A stretch of 64,000 bases of DNA from Struthio camelus (taxonomy: Eukaryota; Chordata; Aves; Struthioniformes; Struthionidae), in NCBI RefSeq assembly GCF_040807025.1, contig NC_090945.1, positions 77,972,088 through 78,036,087 of the forward strand, written 5' to 3'. The translations under genes were made by a program, and so were the position numbers. Under the pieces are notes generated by a model. That model was not told the DNA's origin. It made no database searches and saw only the letters and a list, made by a program, of their open reading frames with translations. Numbering within the stretch: the stretch's first letter is position 1; the number at the start of each line of letters is the position of its first letter. Below, piece by piece: positions 870 through 54,391 of this stretch.

Positions 870-981
870 AAACTTGGCTCTTTGAACAATGAACCTGCAC
901 TGCCTTCTACAAGTTATTTACCTGCTACCCCCAGTGTGGTGCCATCTTCCTCATATATCCCAAGCTCTGAAACACAGCCAG
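870..981 (+). CDS. NELFA: NELFA exon (fourth from last)
   Basis: The acceptor is CTGTTTTACAG and the donor CCAG/GTAAAG, with the end in phase 1. It encodes a proline- and serine-rich linker containing SYLPATPSVVPSSSYIPSSE, a motif I recall in human NELF-A as a near-identical stretch. Confidence 0.92.
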
Positions 982-3900: not shown

Positions 3901-6645
3901 TTTTAGTTACGCGTTGTTAATGTTACAATAAGTTGTCTTTATTTACTGCTGCTTTGTTACATAAAATGTTGCGTTCCTCAGTACAAATAACTTCACTGTA
4001 TTTCCTAAGATTACCTAGTAGGTGAATGGAATGGGAGAAAGGCATGTTTCCACCAGAGCTGTTGCCCAGCTAATTGTATATGATCTAAGCTGCTAAAAAT
4101 GATCCTGTCATTACAGTGGTAGGAGAGAAGGTATCAATAGATTAACTGAAGGTGGAAGCTTTTTTTTTTTCCTTTTCTTTCTCCTCCTCCTTTTTCTTTC
4201 CCAAGTTTTAAAGCCTGGGGGTGAGAAGGAGACTAAACACTGAACTGTAATTCCTAATGTCCTGAAGCTTTTTATTGCTGGTATGTTTGTATATATGTGC
4301 CTGCTTGAAATTAAGCAGGTAATTAATTAAAGATAAAGCTGATTCAGATACTTTATTAAGCTCATCTGTGAGCCTGGCTTGCAGTATCTGAACCTTAAGA
4401 AGCTATGGGACTCTCTTTTAGTAGCTCTGCTACATTTTAGTAGCTCTGCTTCATTTATCAAAAAAATCTCCCTTATAAATTAGTGCAACTCTGGGTTGCA
4501 ACAGGAAGCATTGTGTGCGTGGGGGTGTGTGTGTGTTTGTGTTTTCCGCTAATATCACAAAGAACAAAAAACTGGTAGAAACATTACGTCTATTCAAATG
4601 GTGTGTGGGGTTTGTTTCGTTTGTTTAAACGTCTGTCTGAATTTCAGAATTTAATTGCCCGTGCTGTAAGTTAGGGGCAGGGGTATGCGTTAAAGAGGGA
4701 AAGCCTTGAGGTTAAGGTTTTTGATTTGTTTTCTTTTTTCTGTATCAAGAAAAAAGAGAAAGTTTGTAGACCTATATGCCCGTCTCTGAGTATTAATCAG
4801 TACATGTTGGCAGTGTTTCCTCCAGTGGAGGAGTTCATATTTGTTATCTGTTGCAGAGGGAGCAAATGTATGCTGCGCAGGAAATGTTCAAGACTGCAAA
4901 CAAAGTTACGAGGCCAGAAAAGGCTCTTATACTTGGATTCATGGCAGGATCCAGAGGCATGTATTGAAACTAAATTAGTTTGCTTTTGAATACCTAAATC
5001 TGAAATATCTTCTAGCACTTCTATGTGTGTATATGTGAATGGAAGTCTCTTGCTTTAGCAGTACTCTGGACTGTACTTAGTCTTACATTTTAAAGCTGTA
5101 ACTACTGGGAGTCTTTAGGGCCTGTTTCCAGTAAAAGTCAAACACAATCAAAGGAGCTACTGTGCACAAAGTATATGTGTAACCGGACACACGTAGTACC
5201 ATTGATAAGGGGCTGAGGAGAAACAAGGCAGCCAGTCAGAGGAGTGAACAGACCGGTTGGGTTCTGGTAGTCTATCTAGAAGACCAGTGAGTGCAGATTC
5301 TTTCAGGGCAAACGGAGGTGCAAGGTTCATAGTACAGAGCTTCTTCACTAATTCCTTAGCATTAGAAATGCAGCAACTGTTGTTTCAGAGACCATGGATA
5401 ACTATAGGTGCTGTGAATCACAGGGAGATAAGCTGTCACTTAGCTAGATCTTGTTGTCTATTGGCCTTGATAGACCAAAGGCATTTTACCCAGAAGAGTA
5501 TTGGATGTACGAGGAGAATGGGCACAGGAGTCCTTAAGTGAACTCTCATCTGTACCAGCTCTGGCTTCTAATTTGGTATTTGAGGGCTCTGTCACTGGAG
5601 TGCTGGAACCTAAGTGTGGCCCATGCATTTGGATCAATAAAGTAAATAATTCAAGATGACCAAGGTAAAGTTACTGCGATGGCTCCTGTGCTTTTAAAAA
5701 AAAGTACACTAAACTTTTTTTAGTGTTTAGTGCAAAAGAGGTACTTGAATATCTACATGGATGTCTTTTTGTAATGCAAAGTAAAATATTATTTTAAAAT
5801 GTGTGTGTGTGTATTTTGTTTTTTGTACATGCACATATATGTTCCTACACTAATAACGTTGACATCTTCTGAAAAGTGGGTAATTGACTGCCAACTTTGA
5901 TATACCTGAGCTTCCCTGTTAGCTTAAAATGTAGCAGTCAATACTCCTGCTGGAGTGGAACCAAGTTTTCTGGAGGAGTGGGTTTCAGTGAAGCTGTGTT
6001 TGGGTTTCCAGAACCACTGAAAATTGTTGAGGCTTTTAACTATGATACATGTTCCAAATACAATAACTTTTGGTTAAAAATTCCATAAAATTATAAAATT
6101 ATAAAATTCCATAAAATTAAAATAAATTCCATAAAAGCTTCTCTTACAGTTTCCAAGGCAGATAGAAATGACATTGGCATGGTTGCTCCCCATGTTGTTG
6201 TTCTTCCAGTTATTTCAGCCTTGTGGTTCAGCTTTTTGGAGTTAGTTTTCTTTATTAAACCTAAAACTCCTTCAGTGAGGCATGGAAGCAAGAACATCTT
6301 TGTGCAGCCACATGTGTTAGTGGCGTATACTTGCTATCAGATTTCTGTGTCGTCCCCCTCACCCCAGTATAAGGCATTGAATCTCCATTAAGTGCTTTTT
6401 ACCTGTTCTCATACATAGTGCTGCAATGTGTTTAACTCATTTTTATTCTTATTTTTGCAGAGAACCCTTGCCAAGAGCAAGGTGACATCATTCAAATTAA
6501 ACTTAGTGAGCACACAGAAGATTTACCAAAGGCAGATGGCACTGGCAGCACCACTATGTTGGTTGATACGGTCTTTGAAATGAACTATGCTACTGGTGAA
6601 TGGACCAGATTCAAGAAGTACAAACCTATAACTAATGTTTCTTAA
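870..6645 (+). CDS. NELFA: NELFA, C-terminal part (last four coding exons)
   Basis: Negative elongation factor subunit A, part of the nuclear NELF complex that holds RNA polymerase II at promoter-proximal pauses with DSIF. Exons 870-981, 3431-3684, 4857-4956 and 6461-6645 join in frame to 216 residues plus a TAA stop. Visible are a Ser/Thr/Pro-rich linker containing LPAQFKQRTPMYNS and PTSPLTPTTPPA, then the conserved C-terminal block REQMYAAQEMFKTANKV, GFMAGSRENPCQEQGD, LVDTVFEMNYATGEW and TRFKKYKPITNVS. These match my memory of vertebrate NELF-A (human about 528 aa), so the N-terminal half lies left of the window. It is tail-to-tail with NSD2 but separated from it by another gene. The third intron uses a GC donor. 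Identity is very secure; only the phase of the first exon's upstream junction is unverified. Confidence 0.96.
982..3430 (+). other. NELFA intron
   Basis: A 2.4 kb intron with a GT donor and AG acceptor. It contains a C-rich homopolymer near 2,968-2,978 but nothing that looks coding. Confidence 0.8.
3431..3684 (+). CDS. NELFA: NELFA exon (third from last)
   Basis: Acceptor TTTTTGCAG, donor CACG/GTAAGT, phase 1 to phase 0. It encodes the low-complexity part with TLPAQFKQRTPMYNS, repeated Pro/Thr and a Gln/Pro run, ending KKSLSLT. This region belongs to the flexible C-terminal arm of NELF-A (family knowledge). Confidence 0.95.
3685..4856 (+). other. NELFA intron
   Basis: A 1.2 kb GT-AG intron. 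It holds a pyrimidine tract near 4,160-4,200 and a short GT run near 4,520-4,540, with no other support for features. Confidence 0.8.
4857..4956 (+). CDS. NELFA: NELFA exon (second from last), ends at a GC donor
   Basis: The acceptor is GTTGCAG. The exon encodes REQMYAAQEMFKTANKV and ALILGFMAGSR, the most conserved C-terminal block of the family. It has 33 codons plus one base. The frame continues correctly into 6461 only if the intron starts at GC (4957-4958, AGAG/GCATGT). Confidence 0.95.
4957..6460 (+). other. NELFA GC-AG intron
   Basis: A 1.5 kb intron starting GCATGT and ending TTTTTGCAG. It includes an AT-rich imperfect tandem (ATTCCATAAAATT-like units) at about 6,080-6,137. Confidence 0.75.
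6461..6645 (+). CDS. NELFA: NELFA last coding exon
   Basis: It encodes ENPCQEQGDIIQIKLSEHTE, then LVDTVFEMNYATGEW and the C-terminus KYKPITNVS, with TAA at 6643-6645. The ending matches the known NELF-A C-terminus with conservative changes. Confidence 0.97.
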
Positions 6646-18204: not shown

Positions 18205-18259
18205 ATGAGTGCCTGGCCCTCTCCTCTGCTTTGGAGCTTAACCATGGTGTGGCTGACAG
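18205..18259 (+). CDS. Membrane-protein gene exon 1: signal peptide
   Basis: ATG with A at -3. It encodes MSAWPSPLLWSLTMVWLT and ends at CTGACAG/GTAAGT in phase 1. The start is chosen because it gives a typical signal peptide continuing into GIALS of exon 2. Confidence 0.82.
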
Positions 18260-21200
18260 GTAAGTCCTCCTGGAACGGCGTTAGCTCTCGCTGGCTGAGC
18301 CCGGGGCTGGGTAAAGCTGTAATGTGCTGGTGAAACCACCCGGCTTCGCCCTGCCTGGGTGCTGTGGAAGGGTAGGGCAAGAGAAGGGGAGACCCCTGGA
18401 AAGGAAATCTGCGGTTGAACCTAAATTAAAGACAGGCAGCATTTAAAGTGGGTTGAACATGAAAGCTTGCTCTTCGAGAGAAGAAGAAAAAGAAAGAAAA
18501 ACAACCCCCTCCACCCCCCGCCCCCAAGAACCCAATTGCTGCAAACTGAGGAGTTGCAGTGGCCTTTTCATGGCTGAGCCTTAAAGACAAAGGAACAGGA
18601 TGCCCTACTGTGTTCACTTGCTGGAGGTGTAAGGGAAAGTAAGGCACATTAAAATGCCTGAAACCTTCTTGTAATGGTGCCTCTACCTACTCTTTCTTGG
18701 CTCTTTCATCCACTCATACTGCTTATCCAGGAAGTGACTCTATGTAGGGGTCTGCAAACTTGATGGCCTTGAGATGTCGGGTCATGATTGCTGCAGGACG
18801 TGCCTGGCCGTGTGCAATTGGAAAGTCTGTAGGTATGGTGCTGTCCGGCTCCTTCCCCTTATAGCAGCGTGCTCGCGTTTGGCCTCGGCAAGGCAGGCTG
18901 CCCCCGGCTGGAGTGCGAGCCCCTCAGTCCTGCTGCTTGGCTGCAACAGGCACGAGCGCGCTTCAGAGCGCTGCTTGGCACGGGGCAAAACTGCTCCGAG
19001 CTATCACCTGGCAGGCCTTATCTTAGCCATGTGTATCCAGGACCGCCTGAGCGTATAGCAGACTACTAACTTCAGTCCGGCACTCCCTTGAACTTAAACT
19101 ATTTTAGTAACATGTTATGAAAAGATATTTTCAGTTTAAAAAAAAAAAAAATCCATCTTAACAGTACCATGATTTATCACCAAAACTAAACAAGCCAATA
19201 ATGAAAGCTTACGAAGAAGCACTTTTCAACTAAAAAGAAATCTTGTTTAGAAAAGATATTCAGCCACCTTTGGACAGTCCAAGGTGTTTAAATCCACCTC
19301 GGTGTCTCTGGCTGACAGCTGAGCAAATGGTGGGGACCAGCTGCTTTGTGGGAGATGAGACTTTGTGATCATTGTGGTTCTTCTGAGAGACCTGCCTGGG
19401 AGAACTTTATGGTGTCCTTCCATTACTGCTAATGTTTACTTTGAGATTAGTTTAATAAAAAAAAAAAAAAAAAAAAGAGAGAGAGAGACCAACTTGGCTT
19501 CTTGCCAGGCATGAGAAAGGGGAAACACGTTGATTTCAGCCCTTAAGGCAGGCGAGCCCAAAAAGGGGCATCTCACATCTGAGCCCTGTAGGTGCTACAG
19601 AGCTGCTCTGCCCACGTAGGACCAGCACGAGGGGTTCCAGGTCACTTAGGTTTGGACGTGTGGCAAACAAACATGCAACAAAAGGATGATGGTTTTGGGG
19701 GCCACAGCCAGAAGATGCGGTAAGTGGCCCAGGCAGCTGCCTGCTCATCTGCTGCTATACTGAGCAGTTATGGAAAGGTTGGGGGGCGGTTAAGCTCTTA
19801 ATTAAGCACAGAGCCATTGGTACGCGCGTAGGAGGGAGTGCTGGGAACAGGCTTTTTCCACGTGATCGCAGATTTGTAAGGATTCTCTTATTCAGTGTCT
19901 GGATTTTGCTAGAAACGTAGTTAGCGTTAGCAGCCGCCCTAGTCAGTGGCATGGTCTCGCTTACACCACCGTAGTGCTATGCGCGGATCCCCGCGGTGCC
20001 CAGCGCTGCGCGGACAGCCAGCAGACACGGCCCCCAGGGAGAAAGAGGAATCAAAAGCTCAGGGAGGAGTTCGCTTGCGAAAAAGTTTGCAGCGACCCGA
20101 GCTTTCATGGCCGTCTGGCGCTCGTGCCGCAGCCGCTAGCCCCCGTTGCCTCTCCGAGTCTGCAGGCTTTCACCCTGTTCGCCTGTCTCGCTGGTCTCGT
20201 GCCTGCTGCTTCCTCCCTTGAAGGCCCTAGAGCCCTTCCTTAAAATAGCCCTCTGATTGTCCCTGCTAGGGCCGCTTGAACGCAGCCAGCCCGCTTGCCG
20301 CGGGGGCCTAGCAAACATGCGTGGGTCGGAAGAGCGCAGAAACGCTGCGTTTATTGGGGAGCAACGGCCCCGGGACCACGCGCTCGCCCAGCCGGAGTCA
20401 CCGCGCTGGTCTGAAAACAGAAACCGATGCAACTCGCAGTCCTTACGGGACGTGCTTCACGGCCTGCTAGATCTCCTGCCAAGTTTGCTGCCTTACGCAG
20501 ATCAGCGTTCCTAGCGCGTCGGTCGGTCGTTTACTTTCAGAGCTGCTATTTAGCTTGCTTTTCAGCTGGCCACTGAAAATAATAACACCAGCACAATTAC
20601 TTCCAAGAGAGAGGCTGGGTGTTATCTTCTGTCCGTGACTTCTGACTTCCAGTATAAAATTTAGACAAAAGAATTGAAGGTATGTGATGAAAAAGCAGGG
20701 GGGAAAAAACCTCATTTACGGCCAAAGTTGCATGTTTTCAGAAGCTCCAGGCATTGCACAGAGTAAAATAACCCCCTGCCCTGACTTCCTGAACACAACC
20801 GATGTGACAGCTCCTGTGGCAGGAGCTGGCTCTTCTTTTTCTTTTTCTTTTTCTTTTTCTTTTTCTTTTTCTTTTTCTTTTTCTTTTTCTTTTTCTTTTT
20901 CTTTTTCTTTTTCTTTTTCTTTTTCTTTTTCTTTTTCTTTTTCTTTTTCTTTTTCTTTTTCTTTTTCTTTTTCTTTTTCTTTTTCTTTTTCTTTTTCTTT
21001 TTCTTTTTCTTTTTCTTTTTCTTTTTCTTTTTCTTTTTCTTTTTCTTTTTCTTTTTCTTTTTCTTTTTCTTTTTCTTTTTCTTTTTCTTTTTCGCTTGGT
21101 ATTGTATTGCTAAACTAAAGCAGACTCGCTACTTTTCACTTCTAGCTTTATGAGGCTTTCTCCCATCCCGAGACTGGGAAACAACCTCCATGGTTGTGTG

Positions 21201-24200
21201 CTACGAGATCTCGCTCTCATCAGCAGGCAACGTTTCAGTCTGTTACCCCTTGCAGCAAAACATCTCAAATTGCAGTATTACCCCCAATTCTCTCAAGATT
21301 ACAGCTTTCCAGCCTGGGCTGAGAAAAAGCGCTCCTGCTCTTACAGGAGGAGGAATTTCACAGAATCAAAAGAAGCTGAGGCCGGCAGGCAGGACCCCCT
21401 CTGGTCACTGGATGGATCTCTAGAAAAGCTTAAAAAAAATCCCAAACCCATGACTTTTCTTTTCTGATCCGTTTAACTGACATGGAATAAAACAATTAGC
21501 TACTTGACAAGCATCCTAAATCAGATTGTCATATGTCTCAAACAGCTGCTGCTAACACAATCAAGTGTTTTGAGTCATTCTCGAAACCTTTAATCTAAGA
21601 GAGTCGGATGTCCTCAACGCTGGCATCTACTGAGTTGCAGCCTCAAAGACCCTCTAATTTATTTCCTTGTTACGTCTTTCATGTGCCGGTGACGTTTGCT
21701 TCCTTGTTTCTGTATTACTCTTAGTTAAATGTGGCAGAGAAGGCTTTCTGGACACCAAACAAGGAAACATGGGTTAAATAGTTGGTAAAGCCCTAGCGGG
21801 GAACCTCTATGAAAGGGAGAAAACAACTCGGCCGCTGACAATGTGTTGTTTTTTTCTCCTCCCCCCTTAGGTATTGCTTTAAGCCAGATGACCACTACCC
21901 AGGTCCCTATCGCCTCAACACCAGCGCCTCCCAGTGCAACGGCCACCCAGGTCCCTCTTGCCTCGACACCAGGGTCCCCTAGTGCAACCACTGTCTCAGC
22001 CTCTGCGCCCCCAGTTTCTGCTGCGACGCGCTCGGCTGGAGCGGCGTCCGCCACGCCAACCCTTGCCACGTCTGCGGGAGCGCTGTCTGCTGACCCGAGC
22101 ACGGGAGCGCCAACTCCAGTTCTGTCCACCTCCCTGGACGTGACAGCACTCGTTTCTGGAAGCGCGACCAGCTCTCGTGTGCCCACAGCAGCACTCACTG
22201 GTGCCCCGTCCTTCTCTCCGGCTGCGACTGCGTCTCCTGGCGTCCCATCAGCAGCTCCGTTCCTCGCCACCTCGGAGCCCTCGGGCTGCAGCAGGGTGAA
22301 CGTGACAGCGTGCGAGCCTTGTTCCCCGGGGACGTTTCCCAACGATGGTAGGAGTCTGTGCTCACCCCAGCTCCTTGTGTTAGATGGAGAAGTGGAAAGT
22401 AAAGGGAGGCAGAAAGGGTGCGTGTCCTTGTCTTGGAGGGTTGCACAGGGAGCAGGAATGGGAATTAATTTGTTACAGCTTTCTGAAGTGAAAGACTCTG
22501 ACTTTGCTGGGCTTGTTATCGATTGGTCTTCCTGAAGTTTCCTCAGTAGGATGTAGAAGTGGTAGGACCGTGACCACGAAACGTAATGGAAGTACAACTT
22601 GATTTGTTGGCAGGAAGGAGGACGTTGTTTTGATGTGCAGTATGAAATGCAAGAAAAATTTCCAAGTATTTGTCTTAAACGGTTGAAAGAGACTCTCTGC
22701 TGTAGAAACAGCCTTTTCACTTGGGCTCGAGAAAGCACTCATTTGGTACCAATTACCACTCTGTTGTGGTCAGGAGTGCATGGCATTATGTTTCTCAGAG
22801 GTTATTGTGAGATGGTTTTAGACCATAAAATAAAAGCAATGCTTTTTGCACTTACTTCCTCCCATGCAGGGCACTTTTAAAGAGAGGAATAACCAGATCT
22901 GATGCTTTAGGGCACCTCTGCAGAAGGCAGGAGGTAATTCCCACCGCCCTCATGTGCTGGGCGCTTATCGCAGGATCTCCTCCTCTTGCTCACGCACCAT
23001 TGCTGCAGTACCAGGGGCTGGTTCCTGCAAGAAGTGGGGTGGTAAGCTTGTTTTGTGGAGCAAAGACCGCTAGAGCTTGTGTCCGGTGGGAATACTGTGT
23101 TACCTGTGCTCAAAGAGAGGCTGTTTCTGGATAAGGCAGATTCTCTGCTCTGGTATTTTCTGTTTTAGTTCTGCTTTTCATAAGCCTAAATTAATCAGAA
23201 ATTAAAAGAAGTCTATGCTTTTGGGAGGAGGACAAGGAGAAACTCTTCTGTTCCCTCAGATGAAAGGAAGAAAAAGAAGCCTTGGTAATCACCAAGAAAT
23301 CCGTGTTGATGAACTTGAGACCTTAGATTGCTTTATGGCTGTTCTTCAGCTTCCTAATGATGCACTACAGCATCATTAGTGTTAATGTTGTGGTTTTCCA
23401 GCCCTAAGATTGGATCCAGCTGTTCCAGCAAGACAAATGCTTTTGTGTTCTTCACAGTGACTGGTACTTATGAGCAGAAGGGTTGCATTAGAGGGTTAAG
23501 TGAAGTATTGCAGTCCTGATCTCGACCTTTTTGTTCCAATTTAGGCACCCTGAGCTGCTCGTGCTGTTCGCAGGGCTCCTGCACGGGCCCCGCTGACTGC
23601 GTTCCCTGCCCGGTGGGTCACTACCAGCCCCTGAGCGGACAGCAGTCGTGTCTGCCGTGTCCACAGGGGTATTACACCAGGTGAGTGACTGAGCCTCTGC
23701 TGGGGTGGCCGATGCGGTTGGAAGCAGGAACTGCGCACAGTCTCCCTCGAAACGTTTCCCTGCAAAATCTCCTCCCTTGGGCTGTGGGAAAAGTGCTGCC
23801 ATGGCTATTTCTCAGTGGAAAGTACAAACGTTTCTCTTCCCTGAAAGAAAGAGAAGCCCACGCCTTGCTGGTCCGACTTCCTTCTGCCGTGGCGGCCTCG
23901 TGCTGTAAAACGCTTGGTGGCAGGCAGAGAGGGGCCATGCGTTCCCCAGCAGGTAAACTGGATCAGGTTGTTCATTCACTCCAAATAAAAACAGCTAAAC
24001 CCCAGCTAAACTAGTCCAAACAACCCTACTCTGGAGTAAGCTCTAGATTGCCTCTTGTTTGGACTTCAGACTAGATCCCTGGTGGGACTGGCAGAGGTAT
24101 GAAGAGGTGCACCCTTTCAGTGTTGACAAATGTTCCTCACTAGGAACCCCCAGCACGAATACGTGTTGCATCCCAATGGCTGTCTCTTGGCTGGCCGCAC

Positions 24201-27200
24201 ATCTTTTTGCAGTCTTTCATATGTGTAAGGGGAAAACAAGTTTTTTTGTGACGGAGGGATAATGTCTGGGAATGAGGCATGGGGTTTAGCTTTTCAGCTT
24301 TCACCTGTGACTTTCCTCCTGTGAGCAACCAGCTTCCTCTCCGTGCTTCGCAAATTGATTTTCTTATCTCCTATTTTACTGTAAGGCTCTTGTTATGTTC
24401 TAGTCACAGCTGACTGCAACACACTTGGTTGTTTTATTTCTTAGCTTTTTTGTACTGTATCAACTGTATCAATGCCAGAAGCCCGGCATTGCAATTTAAT
24501 CAGGCTTCCTGGTTAACCAGGACCCTGTTTGAGCAGGGAAGGTTGGACTAGATGATCTCCAGAGGTCCCTTCCAACCTCAACTGTTCTGTTATTCCTAGT
24601 TTTCTGGCCCCACGGGTTTTTGCACAGCCCACCCAGATGCACCTCCAGTCCTGCAGGCTCCTCAGCTTTTGCCCAGCGTAACCTGAGCGTTTGCCCCATG
24701 CCGTGATGGAAAGCAGGTGTTGTGTCTGGCAAAAGTCCACAGAGATTCGTGGTGCCTTGGGCTCTGGATGTCCTGCTGAAGGCATTTCTGTCTGTGCTGG
24801 GGCAGCCCTTGTCCCCTGCGCACCAGGGCTCAGCAGCTGCTAATGCTCAAGGAGATGCTGCTTTTCCTAGCATATGAAGCCCCAAGAGCCCTCCCCAAGG
24901 GCTAACATCTGCATGGTGCTGGTCGAGGCAGACTCATGCAGTTGACTTTCGCTGAGGTGGCAAACCTGGGTGCTGGCGCCGAGGATGCTCGGAGGCTCCT
25001 TTCTTGCTATACAAGTGTCCTATAGCTCCGGAGATGCCTGCGCTTACTGCGCACGTGATTTTTCCTCATGTTTTTCCCTTGATTAACCTGATATCTGCTG
25101 CGTCTGTTGGGGTTACCTTATTTCTCTCCACATCTCCAAGTGCTTTAAAGATATGGATCAATCCCCAGTGAGCAGCTCTGCTGCGACGTGGGAGAGGGCA
25201 CAGCCGAGCCGAGGGCTGGGTGGCTGCTGCTGCCGAGGAGGAAGGAAGGGGAAGCAGTGGCTGGATTTACGTGCGCCGGAGGAGGGGTGGGGGAGGCAAG
25301 AAGGAAGGTTGAGGTGGGAAGGGAAGGGAGTGGGGTTATCTTGCGGGGCACAGCATGTGCGTGGCCATCACCATGGCAGCTGGCCACGCTGTGCAGGGCT
25401 CTAATTGGGTCGTTGAACGTTTCTGCGGCGTTTGGAGAATGCAACGTCCCCTGAGCTTTGAGCAGCTCCGGCTCATGCCAGCCCTGCATTGGTTTGCTTT
25501 AAGCAAAGCGTTTGCTATGTTTCCAATTGACTTTCCAGAAATCTCACTCAGCCTTGGGGTTTCCAAAGGAATTAAAGAGCACGTCCGTGTTTTCCACCAA
25601 AGCATCCCGTGGTACGTTAACAGATTCGTACACACGTACTCCTTGTTGGTGGGGATCTGGCTCTATAGGTGACGAATGCGATAGCTTTCCTCCTCCTCTG
25701 CCTTCCCTGTTTTTCTCCCATCCTCCCCAAGGTCTAGCACATTGCATCCCCTTTCGCACAGTCCCTAATATTTCGGGTCAGGACTCTCACGCATCAGTGC
25801 CGATGGGTTTGGCTCCTTTTTTTTGACCATTAAGTGACCTGACTTTCAACAAGGGAGCAGCTCCTTTTAAAACTGACAACAGGTGCTGAACATCAAGCAC
25901 CTTTCCAACGTGTGGGTTTAAGAGCCTGACTTGAAACCAAAATTTTAAAACTTTGTTACAATGAGTTTTTCATAGCCAGAACTTCAGTGTCAGAAACCTG
26001 TAACTTTCCGCAGAGCCCGTATTGCGTACAGGACGTCGCTGGCATTAACAACACAGAAAACTTCATTTTTTCACTGGACCTTTAACATTCAGGCAAGTTC
26101 CAGCTGTTGTTCTTCTGCCTGAACTCCTTCATTGTAATTACTCTATTTCTAGACTTAGTGAAACAAAGAGCTATGTTCTGCTGTCTCCTCTGAAGCGGCT
26201 AAACAGAATAGAAGCTGCAATGACCTAAAATAGCACTAACCCTCTTTTCAATTCTCTTCCCAGTTTTCGGAGGAGCACCACATGCTCTCCCTGCCCACCT
26301 GGCTCTTACGCTAACGAGTCTGGGGCTGCAGCCTGCAGAGCCTGCCAGAGAGGTAGGTTTGGATTTGTATTCAATCCAAACACGTTTTCATCAGAATACA
26401 CGATGCTTTTGCCATAGCTAGATGCAATTGCCAGGTAACTTAAAAGCGCTGAAGAGTAAACAGGTTATTTTGTTTGGGCCAAAAATAGCGTAGTAGATCC
26501 CTTCCCATTCCGTTATTGACGTTTTTATTAAAAAGGAGAGAACTGATCTCACACCTAGTCGTGTTCCCCCTTGCAATAAGCTAATACTAATGGTACAATC
26601 GAAGTCCATTGCAGAAAGTCAGGAAAGAAATGTTCCAAGGTTCAGTTGTAGCATAAAGCGGGGGGTGGGGGGAGAGGAGAGTAGCGTTTCCCATGTTTTC
26701 AATGATAAAAAGTTAGTTAACACATCTTGTTTTGGTTAGTCTATCTTCCACAGTCTGAGGATTGAGCATAACGTTCTCCTTCCTCCCCAGCCATTAAAGG
26801 CCGGGGGTTTTCGGCTCGGCGAGCCGTCTTGTGCACCTCCTTACAGGCGGTATGAGCCTCGTACGCTGCGTTCCCAGACGGTGTAACAACACGCTCAAAA
26901 CAGACCAGCGTTTACTTATGCAAAAGCCTAATTAGCACATGCCACACGGCAGCTCTTCTGTACACAAATTAAGCGCTGCTTGCACAGGCACAACTGTTCT
27001 TTTGAAAATCCTCCCACCCAACGGGTTGGCTGATGGCTAAATCTTTGTCTGTCGTTGGCTAAGTCTGGGAGGAAAAAGCGTTCAGACAGCAGTCGGAGAC
27101 TCTCCTGGGTGGCAGTGATGCAGCGTGCCACTTCCTCCGCTCCGCGGATTCAGACGCTGCCCGTTGGACCGCAGAGGAGCCACGAGGGGGGCTCGTTAAT

Positions 27201-30200
27201 CATGCCTTCATAAATTAATGAGTTGCTTTCTGCTGGCAGGGTGAGGGAGGTTGCTCTATTTTCTTCCTGCTCAGCGGTGGGGCATGGCGCTTGTTCCAAA
27301 TTTGGGCCAGTGTCAAGGGTGCCTGGCAAATCTTGTTGCCCACCCCACTTCCAGCTCCTCTCCGAATGCAGACGCCCTAATCCTGTCCCCTCCCCATGGT
27401 GCCGTGATGAATTGGGCACCCTCCCAAAGCCGCGTGCCCACCTGCCCTCCAGGGTGGTGGTGTGCAGCGTTTAGCGGTTCCCAGTCCTGTGCAGGGACGC
27501 GTGAGCCTGGTCTGTCCCGGCCCTGTGGCCGGCTGTGATGATGTCTCGATGTGCTTTGGGGAAGGGTCTGCGCGTGCCCATGGGCTCTGCGCGCTCCTGC
27601 CCTTCGTGGTCCTGGCGACGCAGCGAGGGGTAAGAAGGCAAAGAGCAGGTTGCTGCAGCGAGCAGAGCTGCTCCCGTTTACGAGCCTTGCGCCCTTCCCC
27701 CTGGGGGACAAGGGTGCCCCCAGACTTCTCGATGGGGGGAAAAGGGTGCTCGGGTCCTGCCAGGGCTGGGGTGACCGAGGGGTCTCCCCTGGCTGGAGCA
27801 GAAATGGCAGCCACAGCTGAGTTAAGCCAGGAGGTAGCACAGGGATCACAGATTTGAGCCTAATTCCAGTTTACTCTGTGGAGAGGAGCCTCCATCCTTG
27901 GTTTACAGCTCTCCTGAACTACCGGTTCCTTTTCTTGCTATGTAGAAAACATCCCGCATGTAGCTTTTATCGGGGTGGAAGGGAACTGCCCGCTCACGAC
28001 AGCGGCAGGTACCTCATTGTCCTCCTCTTTCTCCCAACAACTTCCACCCCAGTCCCTGTGTCTTCACTAAGTAAATACAAAATTAAAAACCACCCACTCT
28101 CCCCATAGGGTCTGCACGTGGCCTTCCGTGCTGGGAGAGCTGATGGTCGGCCTCCCTGGCGGCGTTCAGGGAGTGAGCAGGAGCACCAGGGGTTGCTGCC
28201 GGAGCCCTCTGCCCTTCCCATCAGCATGGCAGAGGTCCCTGGGACACTTTTATTGCTCCTTCAGGGCCTTCGGCGAACGGGAAAAAACAAACGTCCCGAA
28301 TGGGCCCCTGAAACGCCACCCTAAATCTGAGTGTTAATTTGGTTGCTTGTAAAACGGCAATCAGCAAATAACTAATAGTGTGGAGGGAAGATCCTGAAAA
28401 CTTACTCTTCTTTTTCTCAGGGTATTTCAGCGCCCAGCAAAATGCAGCTTTCTGCCTGCCTTGCCTGCCTGGATCATTTTGCAAGTAAGAAATCCACATG
28501 GGACCTCAGAGGTCTGTGGGCTGGAGAGGGATATTTTCCTCCTGGTAGCAGTCACTGAGCTGAAAAGATCCGTTTTACTGGCAAAAGGAAGGTTACTGCG
28601 ACTTTCCAGCTGAATAGCTATCACTGCCGAGCCCTGGGGAGAGGGGGTCGGGCAGTGGGGGAGAAGATCCCGACACATACAGCGTTGCATGAACGAAGAG
28701 TGACTTTTAGGCTCGTTAGCCTGTGTGTGTTTTGGGATCAGTCGCACCACCGACCCCTGTACCTGTGCCGGAGGCTGGTTGGGTACGGAGGCAGCCCAGG
28801 TGCTATGCAGCAGTTGCAGCTCAGAGCCAGCCTCAGAAACCTTCCCGTGCCCACGCTGCTACATGGCACGGCGGTTGCCCTAAACAGGCTAACACTGGAT
28901 ACGGGTATGGCTGGGAGTCACTCTGGGTCTTCTAGTTTTGGGTTTAGCTGATAGTTTGTTTATCAACAGGATAAACAGATGTGTCAGGGTGTGCAGAAAG
29001 CAGTAGCTAAACTCTCCTGGCTGCAGTCATCTTCGTGATGGAGGAGAAGGTGCCTCCCAGCCAGTGGGGGTACCTAGAGGTGAGTCTGCACCCTGCTATG
29101 GTAAGGCTGCCTGTGCTAAGGGTGCAGATTTTAAATTCAAAGTAGATTAGCTAACTCATGAATATTTATCCTCCTTCTGACCTTACCTGGAGCTTGCCTG
29201 TGCCACAATGGATCTCTGCTGAACCACGGTGAAACTGCTACAAAGCCATACTCCAGGGCTTATGCAACTGCGTTGTGTGTCCATCTCTCCTAACTAACTT
29301 TAGCATCCGTTGACCAGTTCCAGTCAAGTTTGCTAAGGGATAGGAACTTCAGAGATACCATGCAACTAAAGGGAGGACAGAAATGCCATCATGTGCTCAA
29401 CCCTGATAGTTATGGGAGAAAGCACACTGGAGAGAGACCTCATGGATGACCACAAAATGGCAGAGGCTTATCTCCTGGTAGACACCAGAGAACTGAGCCT
29501 CAGCGTATGCATAAATAAATAAATAAGTGTATATATAAATAAGTGGGCTTTGGTAGGTTGGGTTCGTCTCAGAGCTGCTTGCCATACTGCTTTGTCTCTC
29601 CTCTCTCCCCAGCACCACCAGCTGCACCGTGTGTCTGGCTTGCCCTGGTGGGAAGGAGGCTCTTCGCGAGGCATCCGAGGAGTGCACACCTTGCCTCCCA
29701 GGTAACGAATGTAGGGTGGGGGACCACGATAGCCTAGCTGAGCACACACCACTTCAACACCAGAGCCTGCAGAAGGGCTGATTTACGTCCGAGGCTCCTC
29801 AGACGTGAACGCCCCACTGACATCTGCAGAGCAAACCGTTGCCATCATAGTGATGGCAAAGCACTGGCAGTTTTTGGTCCCTCCTAGCTCTCCAGGGCCT
29901 GCTGCTGGAGTCACTGTCAGCTGAGGGCCTGTTTGCCTGCGGCTGCAGGGTTTGTTGCCGTGGACTCAAAATGCTTCTGAGGCCACAGCTGCGCTAGGTC
30001 TTCCTGCCAGCGTGGTTAACTTCCTCTGAGGAACGCCCTTTGTCTGTGGGACAGGGCTGTCGGGAGCCCAGGGTAGATACCGCTCTAGGAACTGTGTTTT
30101 TGCCAGTGGTGTTTGCTTTGCTGATGAAACCAGATGTGTTAGCGCTGCAGGAGTGCTTGCAGAGGTGGGGGACTGGCGTGTGCTCTGCACGGCCACGGCT

Positions 30201-33200
30201 CCTGGGCAAGGCATAGTCTGAGGCTGGGAAACAGCTGGGGTGAAGGGGGGACTTGGTGAGGGGAAAATGAGGAACTGACTTGTTTCTTTGCTGTCTTAAA
30301 TAACATCACCCTGCACACGGTGAGGCAGTGAGACGGCAGCATGATCCAGCCACCCACACAACTGCTGATGTGGAGCCTCCCCTCTAGAAAGAGTTTTTGT
30401 AGTCAAGTTGTCTTTTAAACATGCAGAAAAGCATTAATCACCCTGAGACCCACAGCTTTAGTGACCCATCTTCCTTGCAAAGAGGTGAGAACTAAGCTGG
30501 GCTTTAAACTTCACTCAGCACGTTTCAAACAGCTCGAAAGCGTTTGAATCCAGAATTAGAGAGGATGAAATATTTTGTTGACCTCCATCTCCAACCTTCC
30601 CTCTGTTTTAGAACCACAGCTCAGTACTAAACCCACCTCCCAGTACTGAACGTACCTACTGACTACCCACCTACGCCAACTTGCTCTATTCACCAGATCT
30701 GAAACCACACAGTAGTATTTCTTCCCTTGCACTTTCCTGCCCCTTTGCCTCTGAGCAAGGACCAAATTCCACGTTCAGGTTTTGTGATGCACGTGAAGTA
30801 TTTGATGGTCTTTCTCCACGTGACTTTAAAAGACAGATGGTCCATATGCAATTGCAAAGGCCCCAGGGTCTAGCCCCACATTGTAATGTTGTGCTTATTT
30901 GCTGTTTAGGTATGTTCAAAGGTCCCAGCGACAACAGATGCAAGCTCTGCAAGGCGGGAGAATACCAATTACAGCAAGGCAAGGAAAGCTGTGACCTATG
31001 CCCAGAAAATCACTACTGTCCTGTGAGTCTCCATTAGCTGATTTGACAGCCTGGATTAAAAAATATAGCTGTCCTGTAACAAGTTAAATATACTTTAATT
31101 AACACCATTTTCATCTAAACCTGTTTTCTTTTCTTAACTACATAGAGGGAATGGTTAAAATTGTGATAGCAGGAGTTGGGCTTTGTTCTGCACATCAAGC
31201 TTCGCAGTGAGCCGTCAGGGGAAGGTTAGATGATGGTTTATCCATTAGCTAGGCTATTTGGTGCATGGACATGCTGTATATGGAGCCCTGCTGCTATTCT
31301 TACTCTGAATAACACCACAGGTGAAGACAGGCTGACCATTTCTTGGTTATTTTTCTTCTCTTTTTCAATGCTGAAGTGTTACCTCCCGGCAATACCAGTG
31401 ATGCTGTCCGCAAAGGTGCTCACGCACCTCTCTCGTGCCCGCAGCCCTCTCCCAAGGTGGTACTGGCACTGTTTGAAGGCTAATCCCTGCTCCAATGGGG
31501 GAAGGTAGTCATGGAGCCCAGCTACACATCTAAAACCCTTGGTCTCAGCACAGCCCTCAGCTCTGCATGCAGCAACCCTGGCTCCACTCGTTTGCTGGAG
31601 CGAGGGATAACGTCGCCCAGCTCTAGTCCCCAGCCAGGTTACAGGCAGATCCACCTCGGCTCAGGAGGGTGAGGGGGGGAAAAAGAAAAGTAGCAGTAGC
31701 ACCAGCACCTAAAAGTGCTGATACTGTAAGGTTGCTGTTTGCCAGACTGCTGCGGTAGCAGCCCATCTCTAGTCCTGCCTCTGCCCTGTCTCGGTTCTCC
31801 AAGACCTTCATGTGGGAAGTCACTCCTAAGATCTCCCTTCTGAGACAGCAAGGCAGAGGGTACTTCATAAAGCAGTCTTTCCCAGCATGTATCTGCCCTG
31901 CCCCCAGCTCAAAGAGGCTTTTATCAGACTATGCTTACTGCAGAGGCAGTGCTTGATTTATTGCAGTCTTCACTGTCCAAGTAACTCTCTTTTTCTTTTG
32001 GGTAGAGCCCGGATGTGAACCCAGTCAAGTGCCCTGCTGACGCCTTCTGCCCCGCTGGCAGTGCCGAGCCTGAGTATTGCATGGAGGTGTTTTTTTACAA
32101 GGCAGGAGACTCATGCCAGCTGGCCCCTCTGATCATCCTCCTGGCTGTTTTTGCAGCAGGTGAGTGTCCGTCTTTGCTGTGCTCTGGTAAAACCAGCCAC
32201 CCCTCTGAAATCTGCATTTCTAATGATGGATTCTTTGAATATTTGATCTATTATGACGTCATTGCTTCTCTCCTGGAAATGGCTGGAGATCTCTAATTCA
32301 TCTCAGTTGCCCTGTCTTGGTTAAGTTTTCCCATATTCTTACCTTACTGCCCAAAAGCACAGTGAAGTATGGTGTCACAAATATAAAGACAATGTTGGAG
32401 TCAGACCTTAATAACATGGTTAACTGGTCAAATTTGGTTTAAAAGAACGTGTGGGACATGTCTGTAAATGCTGTAAAGAAATATACGACCTGTGAGATGA
32501 ATTAGCCTGCAGACTCAGGCCTATCGAGGAATTGGATCTAACAGTTCAAAAGCGGCTCAAACAGAGACACTACAGTTAGGCATGATGCATCAGCTAGGTC
32601 TGTGGCTGCTGTGAAGGCCTAGCTATAAGAATACTGGAGTACAAGTGCGTTAAAATGTGACATGCTGTTACTTTGCTGCAGTGAACTTAGGAATCGTGGC
32701 ACCCCAGCAAGTTTTGGTTAAACCTATATCTCAAGATGTCAACCTCAGCTCGGTCTAGAGTGTATTGGGTTGCCCCAAAGGTATATGTGGAGTATCTTGC
32801 CTGCCCCAAAGTAGGAAAACAGACAACTTCCTATCACTGATGAGGCTTCAAAGGGAAGGCCAAAGGAAATGTGCTACAGAAACATCTTGAGATGTTCCAG
32901 ATTACTTGCGATATTCCAAATACTTATTTAAAGATGAGGCAGCTGGGGGGTACAGGCTATCAGGTCTCTTCCTGCCCTATGTGTTACATGCAGCTCATGC
33001 AGCACCTGCAACAAATGTTTGGGCAGCTGCTGGTGTCCCCTGTGAGAAGGAGATGCAAAGACAACAGGTTCTCTGTGCCTCGTTATTGCTCTTTCTTGTA
33101 CCTGACTCTTCCTGGATGGAGCAAACACCCTCATTGCTAGAGGGAGGATTAGCTCATGGCAAACTCTCACAGCAGAGCCTCTTGGAGTGGGTGTTGTCAG

Positions 33201-35199
33201 CCTGTGTGGTGCTGGTTGTGTTGAGGCAATGGTGCACCCTGTAACCAACAGCTTTCTCGCACAGAATGAAAGACATCTGCACAGACTCACCAGGTGGGGC
33301 ACCCCCAATCCAAGATGATACTTGCTATAAAATTGGTTCATTAGTGAAAAGGCTAGAAGCCAACAGGCAGATGAGCTTCTCTACAAGGAGATTCCGTGGT
33401 GAATACCGATTCCAAAACAATGAATATGCAGCATTTGGAGTTTCAGTAGAGGGGGGGGAAAAAGATTTCTGTAGTTTTTAAACAAAGTCTGGGAGTAGGT
33501 TCGACCAAAGCTAACAATTATGATGCACACCAGCAACTTTTACTGCTATGGGTGGTGAAAAGGGCAGAAGTGCAAGCTGGGAAGAAAGATATTTAAACCA
33601 GGACAGATCTCCTATGCACAGGTACCAAAGTGGTATTACTGGGGGATTTGTTTGTTAGCAGCTCTCCTGACACCAGGCTTCCATCTCCTCCAGATAGTCT
33701 AAGGGATTAAGGACAGATATCCATGAGCTTGTGCTCAACAGTTCTGCACCTCTTTTCCCTCTGCCTCCTGAACAGTGGCTGTCTGTGCCAGGCTCAATGT
33801 TGTCAAAAGGCAAAGGGAAGATAAGAGAGGCAAACCTGTTATTCCCTGCAATTAAGAGGAACGAGGGCAAAGCTGCTTCTCCGGTAACGAATCAGCATTA
33901 GCTGCTGTCATCAAAATCCTCTCTTGACATTGACGACTATATGGATACATAAGAGGAGAAAGGACAGTAGGGAGTCTGGAGGAGGAGCTACAGCTTTAGC
34001 AACCCTGATCAACTGCTCTTCCTCAGACAACTGAAGTGTTGTCAGGGTAAGAGCTTCCAAGGGTTATTCTCACAAGACATGACTAGAACCATGTGAAAGT
34101 TTATCCACTTTTGCAAAGCTATATTCCAAAAATCTGCCAAGACAGGTATCAGAAAAAGTGGATTAAAATGAGCTGTACGAAAAGCCTACGTAACCAGCAT
34201 TTCCGATAGCCAAGTCTGAGCGTCAGAAAACAACGTTTCTTAGCTAAGTCCTGCATATCAAAGTTTGCTAAGAAGAGGAGTAAAAGAAACAGCCCATGCT
34301 TACGAGAACCAGCGAGTAAGTATTTTGTAAGAGTTCAGAGATCAAATTCACGGCTGATATAACAGATCAATTGTTTACCATGAGATTGTCTGCTCTCGCA
34401 ATCTAAATCTGGACATATTTGTCTGGACATATTGCATTACAATGACAGATTTGTGCTATTCCGTTAAGATCAATTTTCTCTGATTATGCTTATGCCAGAA
34501 AAATAGCAACACAAAAAGTCACAGTACTTGATATTTGTCAATTATTTCCATGCCTATGCCCCACCTAAAAGTAATTTTTTCTGACAGTCCTCATCTCAGT
34601 CTAGACTCAAAGTTAATCTAGGTCAGTTACTTCATTATAAGGCTTCATTATAAGGCACTGTGCAGAGCAAACTAATTTCTCAGTAAGATCCTTCAGTAGA
34701 ATAGCACAAATGCAAGTCGTCTGCAATTGATGAAGATGTCTGACAGAAAATAATAGTTCAACAGAGCAAAGAATAAACAGGGAGGGAAGTAACAGAGCAC
34801 AAAGGCAAGTAACTGAATTATTTCATTAAAACCTGCTCTTCTCAACAGCTTTCAGAGTAAAGCTGAAATGCCAAAGTTGAGTAGTATTAAAGCTATCCAA
34901 AACTTTTCTGTGCACAATATATAGGAAAATAAAACTTCATTTTACTGAAAGAAAATTGGTAAATCTTCAATCAAGAAGTCCTAGAGCAAACACCACCTGC
35001 TATTTTACCTTCCCACCTGAAGGTAATTATCCTTCCTTACGTTCCAGGTGGACTCCTTGTTGTCTTGCTGATAATTCTGAAGAGAAGGCAAGAACGTAGG
35101 AAGAAATCTTTGAAGTCCCTACTCTTACCAAAAGGATCAGGACAACACACAACGTATGGTGTAACGGAGCACACAGAACCAGTATACGCTGGTTGGTAG
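18205..35199 (+). CDS. Unnamed type I membrane protein with mucin stalk and GCC2/GCC3-like cysteine modules (9 exons, 442 aa)
   Basis: Nine exons with GT-AG junctions join in one open frame: 18205-18259, 21871-22347, 23545-23680, 26264-26352, 28421-28484, 29613-29701, 30910-31022, 32006-32159 and 35048-35199. The product starts with a hydrophobic signal peptide (residues 1-23, cleavage plausible after ALS). Next come a Ser/Thr/Pro/Ala-rich stalk (about 24-158) and a cysteine-rich ectodomain (about 158-378) of repeated CxxC-P-x-G-x-(Y/F) units. One transmembrane helix (about 380-403) and a basic tail (404-442) with tyrosines 429 and 439 follow. Three N-glycosylation sequons are present (N162, N240, N274). 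The modules resemble ephrin-receptor-like GCC2/GCC3 repeats of EPH, SCUBE and SVEP1 proteins and, less closely, TNFR repeats. I recognise no death domain, TRAF motif or kinase. A cell-surface receptor or adhesion role is inference. It may already carry a LOC-type annotation. Confidence 0.86.
19454..19488 (+). repeat. A tract after AATAAA, then GA repeat
   Basis: The hexamer AATAAA at 19,454 runs directly into a 20-base A tract (19,457-19,476) followed by GAGAGA. It may be the tail of a retroposed transcript or a simple A-rich expansion. No parent coding sequence is visible upstream. Confidence 0.4.
19960..20530. promoter_or_regulatory. CpG-island-like block in intron 1
   Basis: Dense CpG dinucleotides (several tens by eye in under 600 bases) stand out sharply from AT-rich surroundings. 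Both strands have short open frames here, as expected of GC-rich DNA. It could be an alternative promoter or an enhancer. Confidence 0.5.
20835..21092 (+). repeat. Perfect hexanucleotide repeat (CTTTTT)43
   Basis: 258 bases, 43 uninterrupted copies of CTTTTT, ending at CGCTTGG. The minus strand is pure purine. The tract makes a spurious Phe-Ser open frame. It has mirror symmetry and no interruptions, so length variation is expected. Confidence 0.98.
21871..22347 (+). CDS. Membrane-protein gene exon 2: mucin-like stalk
   Basis: The acceptor is CCCCCCTTAG and the donor GATG/GTAGGA, phase 1 to phase 1. Of 159 residues the first ~135 are mostly Ala, Thr, Ser, Pro and Val, typical of dense O-glycosylation. 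It opens with a 48-base tandem duplication (21,897-21,944 and 21,945-21,992; unit begins TQVP). The end begins the cysteine region (CSRVNVTACEPCSPGTF) with one N-glycosylation sequon. A long antisense open frame over this exon is a composition shadow. Confidence 0.85.
21897..21992 (+). repeat. 48-bp tandem duplication in the mucin exon
   Basis: Two adjacent 16-codon units, TQVPIASTPAPPSATA and TQVPLASTPGSPSATT. They differ at a few bases, so the duplication is not brand new. Confidence 0.9.
22348..23544 (+). other. Intron 2 of the membrane-protein gene
   Basis: A 1.2 kb GT-AG intron. I see no other feature in it. Confidence 0.8.
23545..23680 (+). CDS. Membrane-protein gene exon 3: cysteine modules
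   Basis: The acceptor is CCAATTTAG and the donor ACCAG/GTGAGT, phase 1 to phase 2. It encodes SCSCCSQGSC, DCVPCPVGHYQPLSGQQSC and LPCPQGYYT, classic CxxC-P-x-G-x-Y spacing. Confidence 0.88.
23681..26263 (+). other. Intron 3 of the membrane-protein gene
   Basis: A 2.6 kb GT-AG intron containing a CR1 3' end at about 24,505-24,598. Otherwise it holds only GC-rich open-frame noise. Confidence 0.8.
24505..24598 (+). mobile_element. CR1 LINE 3' end fragment
   Basis: The stretch GGTTGGACTAGATGATCTCC followed by AGAGGTCCCTTCCAACCTCA is the hallmark 3' end of sauropsid CR1 non-LTR retrotransposons. It is 5'-truncated, as most copies are, and lies in the gene's own orientation. Confidence 0.93.
26264..26352 (+). 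CDS. Membrane-protein gene exon 4: cysteine module
   Basis: Acceptor CTCTTCCCAG, donor AGAG/GTAGGT, phase 2 to phase 1. It encodes RRSTTCSPCPPGSYANESG then ACRACQR, one complete module with an N-glycosylation sequon. Confidence 0.88.
26353..28420 (+). other. Intron 4 of the membrane-protein gene
   Basis: A 2.1 kb GT-AG intron. The GC-rich part around 27.2-27.9 kb yields overlapping open frames on both strands without recognisable protein content. Confidence 0.8.
28421..28484 (+). CDS. Membrane-protein gene exon 5: cysteine module
   Basis: Acceptor TTTTTCTCAG, donor GCAA/GTAAGA, phase 1 to phase 2. It encodes GYFSAQQNAAFCLPCLPGSF and a further Cys. The junction with exon 6 creates an NTT sequon. 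Confidence 0.86.
28485..29612 (+). other. Intron 5 of the membrane-protein gene
   Basis: A 1.1 kb GT-AG intron with an (AAAT)n-like stretch near 29,511-29,545. I see nothing else. Confidence 0.8.
29613..29701 (+). CDS. Membrane-protein gene exon 6: cysteine module
   Basis: Acceptor CTCTCCCCAG, donor CCCAG/GTAACG, phase 2 to phase 1. It encodes TTSCTVCLACPGGKEAL then EECTPCLP. Confidence 0.86.
29702..30909 (+). other. Intron 6 of the membrane-protein gene
   Basis: A 1.2 kb GT-AG intron. I see no supported feature. Confidence 0.8.
30910..31022 (+). CDS. Membrane-protein gene exon 7: cysteine module
   Basis: Acceptor GCTGTTTAG, donor CCT/GTGAGT, phase 1 to phase 0. It encodes NRCKLCKAGEYQLQQGKESC then DLCPENHYCP, an almost textbook ephrin-receptor-like repeat. 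Confidence 0.88.
31023..32005 (+). other. Intron 7 of the membrane-protein gene
   Basis: A 1.0 kb GT-AG intron. I see no supported feature. Confidence 0.8.
32006..32159 (+). CDS. Membrane-protein gene exon 8: last cysteines and start of the transmembrane helix
   Basis: The acceptor is TTTGGGTAG and the donor GCAG/GTGAGT, phase 0 to phase 1. It encodes CPADAFCPAGSAEPEYC and then APLIILLAVFAA, the outer half of the membrane helix. Confidence 0.87.
32160..35047 (+). other. Intron 8 of the membrane-protein gene
   Basis: A 2.9 kb GT-AG intron inside the transmembrane-coding region. No gene, and no repeat I can name, is seen in it. Confidence 0.75.
35048..35199 (+). CDS. Membrane-protein gene exon 9: rest of the helix, cytoplasmic tail, stop
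   Basis: The acceptor is TACGTTCCAG. It encodes GGLLVVLLIILKRRQERRKK, a Leu/Lys/Ser linker and the end TTYGVTEHTEPVYAGW, with TAG at 35197-35199. The positive cluster right after the helix supports type I topology. The two tyrosines are the only obvious signalling-type residues. Confidence 0.87.

Positions 35200-41583: not shown

Positions 41584-54391
<12,808 letters not shown>

What the first reader, a model, noticed from the sequence alone, without database searches (positions are those of the whole stretch)
18205..35199. Unrecognised membrane receptor-like gene with mucin stalk and repeated cysteine modules
Nine exons with proper splice sites and matching phases give a 442-aa type I membrane protein. 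It has a signal peptide, an O-glycan-type stalk, about ten CxxC pairs in GCC2/GCC3-like spacing, a helix and a short tail. I know no named vertebrate gene with this architecture at this locus. Seen: frame, splice sites, motifs. Inferred: surface receptor or adhesion role.
Basis: partly seen in the sequence, partly recalled or inferred. Interest (0 to 1): 0.88.

Follow-up and report, generated by a model that had tools for sequence, protein, structure and literature searches.

The report
Unnamed conserved vertebrate membrane receptor gene
This is a real, apparently unstudied gene for a cell-surface-type protein found in sharks, fish, frogs, a turtle and birds, and so far not seen in mammals, with a hardly changing tail end that probably docks an unknown partner inside the cell.

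Summary
The gene model is right. Nine exons (18205-35199, +) join into 442 aa with consistent phases; bird orthologues, 73-80% identical over residues 155-442, confirm them exon by exon. The gene lies between NELFA (+) and NSD2 (-). Fish and frog records call it si:dkey-21a6.5; automatic annotation also calls it SVEP1, SCUBE, MEGF9, laminin or TNFRSF9-like. Orthologues run from sharks to birds; two searches listed no mammalian one, without a mammalian control. The ectodomain is a rod of Ephrin_rec_like (GCC2/GCC3) modules with 32 near-invariant cysteines. The "mucin stalk" is an N-terminal, membrane-distal cap, long in the sampled birds and turtle. New here: in the short tail only LL, YG and the C-terminus stay fixed; 60 of 67 aligned homologues end YAGW, 50 of them EPVYAGW. 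TNFR-superfamily membership is not supported. Best guess: an endocytic or sorting receptor that works like ELAPOR1/inceptor and docks a cytosolic partner through its C-terminus. That mechanism is inferred, and canonical sorting motifs are not conserved. No study of the gene was found in ten paper searches.

The parts
18205..18259 (+). Exon 1: start codon and most of the signal peptide (MSAWPSPLLWSLTMVWLTG)
   Evidence: tblastn of P0014 residues 1-19 hits 18205-18261
21871..22347 (+). Exon 2: end of signal peptide, Ser/Thr/Pro/Ala-rich mucin-like cap (residues 25-156), first Cys residues, sequon 162
   Evidence: tblastn P0002 18-185 hits 21870-22364; a 48-bp unit repeated 1.9 times at 21897-21988
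23545..23680 (+). Exon 3: CxCC module and start of the Ephrin_rec_like rod
26264..26352 (+). Exon 4: Ephrin_rec_like module with sequon 240
28421..28484 (+). Exon 5: Ephrin_rec_like module (ends FCN)
29613..29701 (+). Exon 6: Ephrin_rec_like module; sequon 274 spans exons 5 and 6
30910..31022 (+). Exon 7: Ephrin_rec_like module, ends CPENHYCP
32006..32159 (+). Exon 8: membrane-proximal Cys module (with the end of exon 7 the most conserved part of the ectodomain) and first half of the transmembrane helix
35048..35199 (+). Exon 9: second half of the transmembrane helix, tail LL...YG...EPVYAGW, stop codon
867..6612 (+). Upstream neighbour: NELFA exons found at 867-983, 3430-3684, 4851-4955, 6436-6612 (its exact 3' end was not determined)
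   Evidence: tblastn of bird NELFA-containing models P0061 and P0066 at 85-99%; human NELF-A chain 2e-12 for 3418-3735
44750..48913 (-). Downstream neighbour in opposite orientation: part of NSD2 (PWWP ORF 48542-48913; SET and pre-SET pieces near 44905, 45723 and 47741). The low end is approximate; other NSD2 exons were not mapped
   Evidence: NSD2 chain 8.9e-46 against NSD3 2.1e-29 for the PWWP ORF; short motif scan

Best explanation
The locus is the bird orthologue of the unnamed vertebrate gene si:dkey-21a6.5, one protein-coding gene of nine coding exons between NELFA and NSD2. Shown by sequence or prediction: it encodes a type I membrane protein with a signal-peptide-like start, an N-terminal Ser/Thr/Pro-rich cap, a rod of Ephrin_rec_like modules (32 Cys, near-invariant among homologues; three N-glycan sequons at well-kept positions), a highly conserved membrane-proximal module, one membrane span and a 39-residue tail whose fixed points among homologues are LL, YG and a C-terminal EPVYAGW. 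Inferred: it works as an endocytic or sorting receptor or co-receptor. The rod, its membrane-proximal part above all, binds a secreted or membrane ligand; the glycan cap shields or extends it; the C-terminal peptide, helped by the LL and YG positions, is read by one cytosolic partner, most simply a clathrin-adaptor-type protein (YxxW in the place of a C-terminal YxxPhi signal), which sends the receptor and its ligand through endosomes. That the gene is what is stated here: about 0.97. That it is a sorting or endocytic receptor: about 0.4.
Confidence: 0.42

Rival explanations
1. A signalling receptor or co-receptor at the plasma membrane: the near-invariant tyrosine four residues from the end (EPVYAGW) is a phospho-switch or part of a C-terminal PDZ-like peptide that recruits one signalling protein, and YG marks a second site.
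Against: ITIM occurs in 1 of 61 tails, NPxY, YxN and a class I PDZ end in 0 of 61. No kinase or death domain.
Confidence: 0.28
2. A divergent member of the TNF-receptor superfamily that binds a TNF-like cytokine, as some automatic names say (TNFRSF9-like).
Against: The window protein has no PF00020 hit at E up to 1. TRAF2-type motifs occur in 5 of 61 tails, the minor TRAF2 and TRAF6 motifs in 0 of 61, and none in the window tail. Mst1 matches better by sequence and fold, ELAPOR1 better by fold. The 3/14 Cys spacing is the GCC2/GCC3 pattern (recalled).
Confidence: 0.15
3. A structural or adhesion protein: the rod and mucin cap act as a spacer or anti-adhesive coat and the tail anchors it to the cortex.
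For: Best fold match is the mastigoneme filament protein Mst1. The cap is long in the sampled birds (117-169 residues, n = 12) and turtle (140, n = 1) and short in the others.
Against: The most conserved parts are the membrane-proximal module and the last eight residues. A pure spacer should not need a fixed C-terminus.
Confidence: 0.13
4. Not a functional gene: a chance open chain or a decayed pseudogene.
For: No RNA reads for this species could be examined.
Against: Orthologues at 73-80% identity over residues 155-442, all 32 Cys kept, tail end kept, open frame over nine exons.
Confidence: 0.02

Closest known systems
si:dkey-21a6.5 (unnamed gene; name borne by four teleost records, P0062, P0069, P0139, P0147, and one frog record, P0125)
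   Same: Similarity over modules, span and tail; taken as the same gene. The zebrafish sequence itself was not seen; that si:dkey is a zebrafish name is recalled
   Different: No study of the gene was found
ELAPOR1/inceptor (KIAA1324)
   Different: Its solved chains have about 1000 residues; the ELAPOR1-type domain PF23091 scores below cutoff here (21.5 against 33.2 bits); whether its tail shares EPVYAGW was not compared
TNFRSF9 (4-1BB)
   Same: Cys-rich ectodomain with weak sequence and fold similarity
   Different: No PF00020 hit and no conserved TRAF-binding motif here
Mst1 mastigoneme protein (Chlamydomonas)
   Same: Best sequence match in the PDB (7.9e-19) and best fold match, in its Ephrin_rec_like stretch
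   Different: A filament protein of about 1,900-2,000 residues in an alga; shared module only
Eph receptors (EphA4, EphA2, EphB2, EphB6)
   Different: No other matching part was found here; their ligand-binding and kinase domains are recalled, not compared

Membership tests
Orthologue group of si:dkey-21a6.5 | Similarity over CxCC module, rod, membrane-proximal module, TM and tail | tested here: met
   47 of the first 53 rows (E 2.4e-154 to 5.6e-82) cover at least 97% of residues 155-442; the other six (P0014, P0015, P0016, P0026, P0048, P0052) cover 75-93%; alignments A1 and A3
Orthologue group of si:dkey-21a6.5 | C-terminus EPVYAGW | tested here: met
   Window ends EPVYAGW; of 67 A3 rows 50 end EPVYAGW exactly, 60 end YAGW, one ends YTGW, six do not (P0052, P0026, P0134, P0048 end otherwise; P0121 reads on after EPVYA; P0084 is partial)
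Orthologue group of si:dkey-21a6.5 | Same gene neighbourhood (NELFA, NSD2) | tested here: inconclusive
   Found in the window; two other birds have fused NELFA models, P0061 and P0066; not testable here in fish, frogs or sharks
Ephrin_rec_like (PF07699) proteins | PF07699 above curated cutoff | tested here: met
   76.2 bits against cutoff 23.1, four stretches
TNF receptor superfamily | TNFR_c6 (PF00020) domain | tested here: not met
   No PF00020 hit at E up to 1 for the window protein; a few homologues carry a precomputed one
TNF receptor superfamily | Conserved TRAF-binding motif or death domain in the tail | tested here: not met
   TRAF2 motif in 5 of 61 tails and not in the window; TRAF6 and minor TRAF2 motifs in 0 of 61 (motif patterns recalled); no death domain in Pfam
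ELAPOR family | ELAPOR1-type domains above cutoff and whole-length similarity | tested here: not met
   Only PF23091 hit, 21.5 bits against cutoff 33.2; the ELAPOR1 sequence match covers residues 194-249 only
Eph receptors | Ephrin-binding and kinase domains | tested here: not met
   No such Pfam domain among the five families listed for the 442 aa
Membrane mucins | Long Ser/Thr/Pro-rich O-glycosylated domain | tested here: inconclusive
   36% S+T, 51% S+T+P over 132 residues; glycosylation not testable; no mucin domain in Pfam

The most novel reading that the evidence does not exclude
An ancient animal receptor, present at least from sharks to birds and perhaps already in molluscs (Elysia P0084 shares the CxCC module and the order of the first modules), was lost on the way to mammals from its place between NELFA and NSD2. 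It uses a C-terminal docking peptide (EPVYAGW-COOH) that is not a described sorting or signalling signal.
Probability: 0.35. Interest if true: 0.72.

Novelty: new variant of a known kind. Interest (0 to 1): 0.55.

Why it matters
Vertebrate receptor biology is learnt mostly from mouse and human, so a receptor that fish, frogs and birds share but mammals lack would be easily overlooked. Here a gene conserved over some 400 million years (date recalled) carries scattered, contradictory names. If the reading is right, a C-terminal signal kept from shark to bird should have a dedicated partner that a peptide pull-down could find. The gene could be removed in zebrafish or tagged in chicken cells with routine methods.

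Tried and rejected
Rejected: artefact or pseudogene. Rejected as identities: SVEP1, SCUBE1/2, MEGF9, laminin and TNFRSF9-like are automatic names for what is plainly one group of mostly 300-500-aa proteins; the names contradict each other. Rejected as membership: TNF-receptor superfamily, ELAPOR, Eph (see Membership tests).

Led nowhere: NCBIfam gave no family above cutoff for four homologues. A phage record search gave no match. The viral fold library gave one row under 1e-3 (D2E8F2, E 1.0e-04, TM 0.14), too weak to use. The search with the mollusc protein alone (57 candidates) found itself and one other protein, P0180 (7.9e-12, 29% identity). Plain BLAST comparison of that mollusc protein does not by itself separate this family from other module-repeat proteins: 87.4 bits with shark P0025, 93.6 bits with the metagenomic repeat protein P0074, 43.5 bits with P0096. 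The mollusc link therefore rests on the CxCC module and module order seen in A1 and is weak.

The mammal statement rests on two word-based searches: one search lists 120 of 148 hits, all 114. The only mammal-named row that I saw is an otter SVEP1-like repeat protein (P0173). No mammalian positive control was run and many rows bear no species name. I saw no lizard, snake, crocodile or lamprey row either, so database sampling may play a part.

In my group counts the groups were set by hand from species names (recalled; only Emydura was looked up), and unnamed 'lgn' rows by similarity. P0042 was counted as amphibian although it is 73% identical to the Carassius P0043, so the amphibian group is 14 amphibian-type rows plus this one. 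A3 (67 rows) is my selection from the proteins held (180); truncated or fused models were mostly left out. The motif scan also gave one short chance hit (CFTK at 26165, - strand).

Papers: ten searches counted, seen as listings. Passages only were read of PMC6786245 (the gene name stands in a list), PMC13080796 and PMC11659164. Nothing studying this gene was found; supplementary files, preprints and most subscription journals were not searched.
Full report
1. The observation. The window holds nine exons on the + strand (18205-18259, 21871-22347, 23545-23680, 26264-26352, 28421-28484, 29613-29701, 30910-31022, 32006-32159, 35048-35199). All eight introns are GT..AG, the phases match, and the joined frame is 1329 nt, 442 aa plus stop. 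Random joins of pieces of the same lengths stayed open in 0 of 20,000 trials, a weak control. The decisive evidence is homology: the best 13 rows, all birds, match with 73-80% identity over all of residues 155-442. tblastn of P0002 (exons 2-9) and P0014 (exons 1-8) recovers all nine exons between them, in order.

2. Anatomy. Residues 1-23 look like a signal peptide (by eye). Residues 25-156 are rich in Ser, Thr and Pro and free of Cys (S+T 36%). Then come 32 Cys in the ectodomain with a mostly 3/14 spacing, 12 CxxC pairs and three N-glycan sequons (162, 240, 274), one strongly hydrophobic span and a 39-residue tail. Pfam finds Ephrin_rec_like (PF07699, formerly GCC2_GCC3; the old name is recalled) at 1.6e-21, while NCD3G and the ELAPOR1-type domain stay below their cutoffs. 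The mucin-like part is at the distal end. It caps the Cys rod; it is not a stalk beneath it.

3. Setting. An ORF at 3418-3735 (+) matches NELF-A (2e-12), and NELFA exons of two bird models map to 867-6612. An ORF at 48542-48913 (-) matches NSD2 (8.9e-46) better than NSD3 (2.1e-29), with SET and pre-SET pieces on the same strand near 44905, 45723 and 47741. The gene therefore lies between NELFA and NSD2, and both neighbours point towards it. In human, NSD2 and NELFA are recalled to lie end to end at 4p16.3 with nothing like this between them. That is recall, not a test.

4. Relatives. One search (query residues 155-442) gave 148 proteins at E up to 1e-3, of which 120 are listed. One search, with a profile of nine sequences, gave 114 at E up to 1e-10. 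Named sources include many birds, one turtle (Emydura), frogs, a caecilian, coelacanth, lungfish, gar, bowfin, sturgeon, paddlefish, many teleosts, and sharks and rays (groups recalled from species names). Names given by the sources include SVEP1, SCUB1, SCUB2, MEGF9, MEGF6, MEGF11, laminin subunits, TNFRSF9-like, flocculation protein FLO11-like, keratin-associated protein and si:dkey-21a6.5: inconsistent labels for one orthologue group. I saw no mammalian orthologue in either list; the one mammal-named row is an otter repeat protein (P0173). I saw no squamate, crocodile or lamprey row either, and no control for mammalian coverage was run, so "absent from mammals" is likely but not proven. One mollusc protein (Elysia P0084, partial) shares the CxCC module and the order of modules, but BLAST scores alone do not set it apart from other repeat proteins.

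5. What is conserved. In a 67-row alignment (my selection), 32 ectodomain Cys are conserved at 0.98-1.0. Sequons at P0002 positions 159, 164, 225, 242 and 276 are kept in 35 of 67, 65 of 67, 57 of 67, 64 of 66 and 61 of 65 rows; the window protein has those equivalent to 164, 242 and 276 and lacks the other two. The most conserved ectodomain blocks are 340-369, next to the membrane (0.84-0.86). In the tail the mean column identity is 0.52-0.54 except for the last eight residues, at 0.90. Fixed positions are L421-L422, Y432-G433 and E439-W445. Of 67 rows 50 end EPVYAGW exactly, 60 end YAGW, one ends YTGW and six do not (four end otherwise, one reads on, one is partial). Over everything then held, 93 of 180 proteins end YAGW, the rest including other repeat proteins and fragments. 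The cap before the first conserved Cys is 117-169 residues in 12 birds and 140 in the turtle, against 14-23 in the amphibian group (15 rows, one of them a fish that I misplaced), 23-49 in 30 ray-finned rows, 28-55 in 7 cartilaginous-fish rows, 37 in coelacanth and 17 in the mollusc.

7. Tail motifs. Of 61 tails ending Y[AT]GW, [DE]xxxL[LI] occurs in 1, YxxPhi in 22, PxxP in 13, TRAF2-type in 5, ITIM in 1, and NPxY, YxN, PPxY, TRAF6, minor TRAF2 and class I PDZ ends in 0 (patterns recalled). Standard signals are therefore not what selection holds; the EPVYAGW end is. "EPVYAGW" was found in none of the papers searched, and "VYAGW" in two that by title are unrelated (listing).

8. How it probably works. 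My reading is that this is an endocytic or sorting receptor (0.4): the rod presents a membrane-proximal binding site, the cap shields or extends it, and the C-terminal peptide docks a single cytosolic partner. The analogy is ELAPOR1/inceptor, which shares the module fold and is reported to bind proinsulin and insulin, to sit in clathrin-coated vesicles and to direct them to lysosomal degradation (PMC11659164, passages). It is also reported that ELAPOR1 loss impairs vesicle fusion in sperm formation, with a possible tie to VPS54 and the GARP complex (PMC13080796, passages). This is 'works like', not membership: ELAPOR1 features were tested and not met. Rivals are a plasma-membrane signalling receptor (0.28), a TNFR-superfamily member (0.15) and a spacer or adhesion protein (0.13).

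9. Transcription. Six homologues of 332-373 aa lie on contigs of 1.3-1.8 kb from source 'lgn' (P0028, P0036, P0037, P0038, P0042, P0044). A gene with eight introns could hardly fit on such contigs, so they are probably transcript assemblies; this is inference. The Emydura model P0019 lacks exactly what are exons 5 and 6 here (153 nt, a multiple of three), which suggests the same exon borders in that turtle.

10. Verdict. The gene is a conserved vertebrate receptor-type gene for which no study was found. Its near-invariant C-terminus and its apparent absence from mammals are the parts worth following.

Noticed in passing
window 20833-21093: Perfect hexanucleotide array (TTCTTT) of 43.5 copies in intron 1.
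   Followed up: no
window 45908-46038 (-): Rfam SCARNA23 match (61.9 bits, gathering 60) beside the NSD2 SET piece near 45723, on the NSD2 strand. Human NSD2 is recalled to host SCARNA22.
   Followed up: partly
window about 24530-24585: Sequence resembling the 3' end of a CR1 element, a common bird retroposon (recalled motif, not searched).
   Followed up: no
proteins P0061 (Pitangus), P0066 (Hirundo): Public gene models fuse NELFA with 3' exons of this gene; they look like prediction errors, but read-through transcripts from NELFA are not excluded.
   Followed up: partly
protein P0018 (Protopterus lungfish): Predicted protein with extra near-identical Cys-module repeats before the usual rod and tail: either local module expansion or a fused model.
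   Followed up: no
protein P0070 (Zonotrichia), P0066, P0067: Stretches corresponding to the rod exons appear read in a wrong frame (by eye) in these songbird models; annotation error or true exon damage.
   Followed up: no
proteins P0014 (Grus), P0121 (Amia): Predicted proteins that replace or extend the conserved C-terminus; if real they would lack the EPVYAGW end.
   Followed up: no
window 21725-22738 (-): 337-aa open frame antisense to the mucin exon; probably a by-product of the composition of the exon.
   Followed up: no
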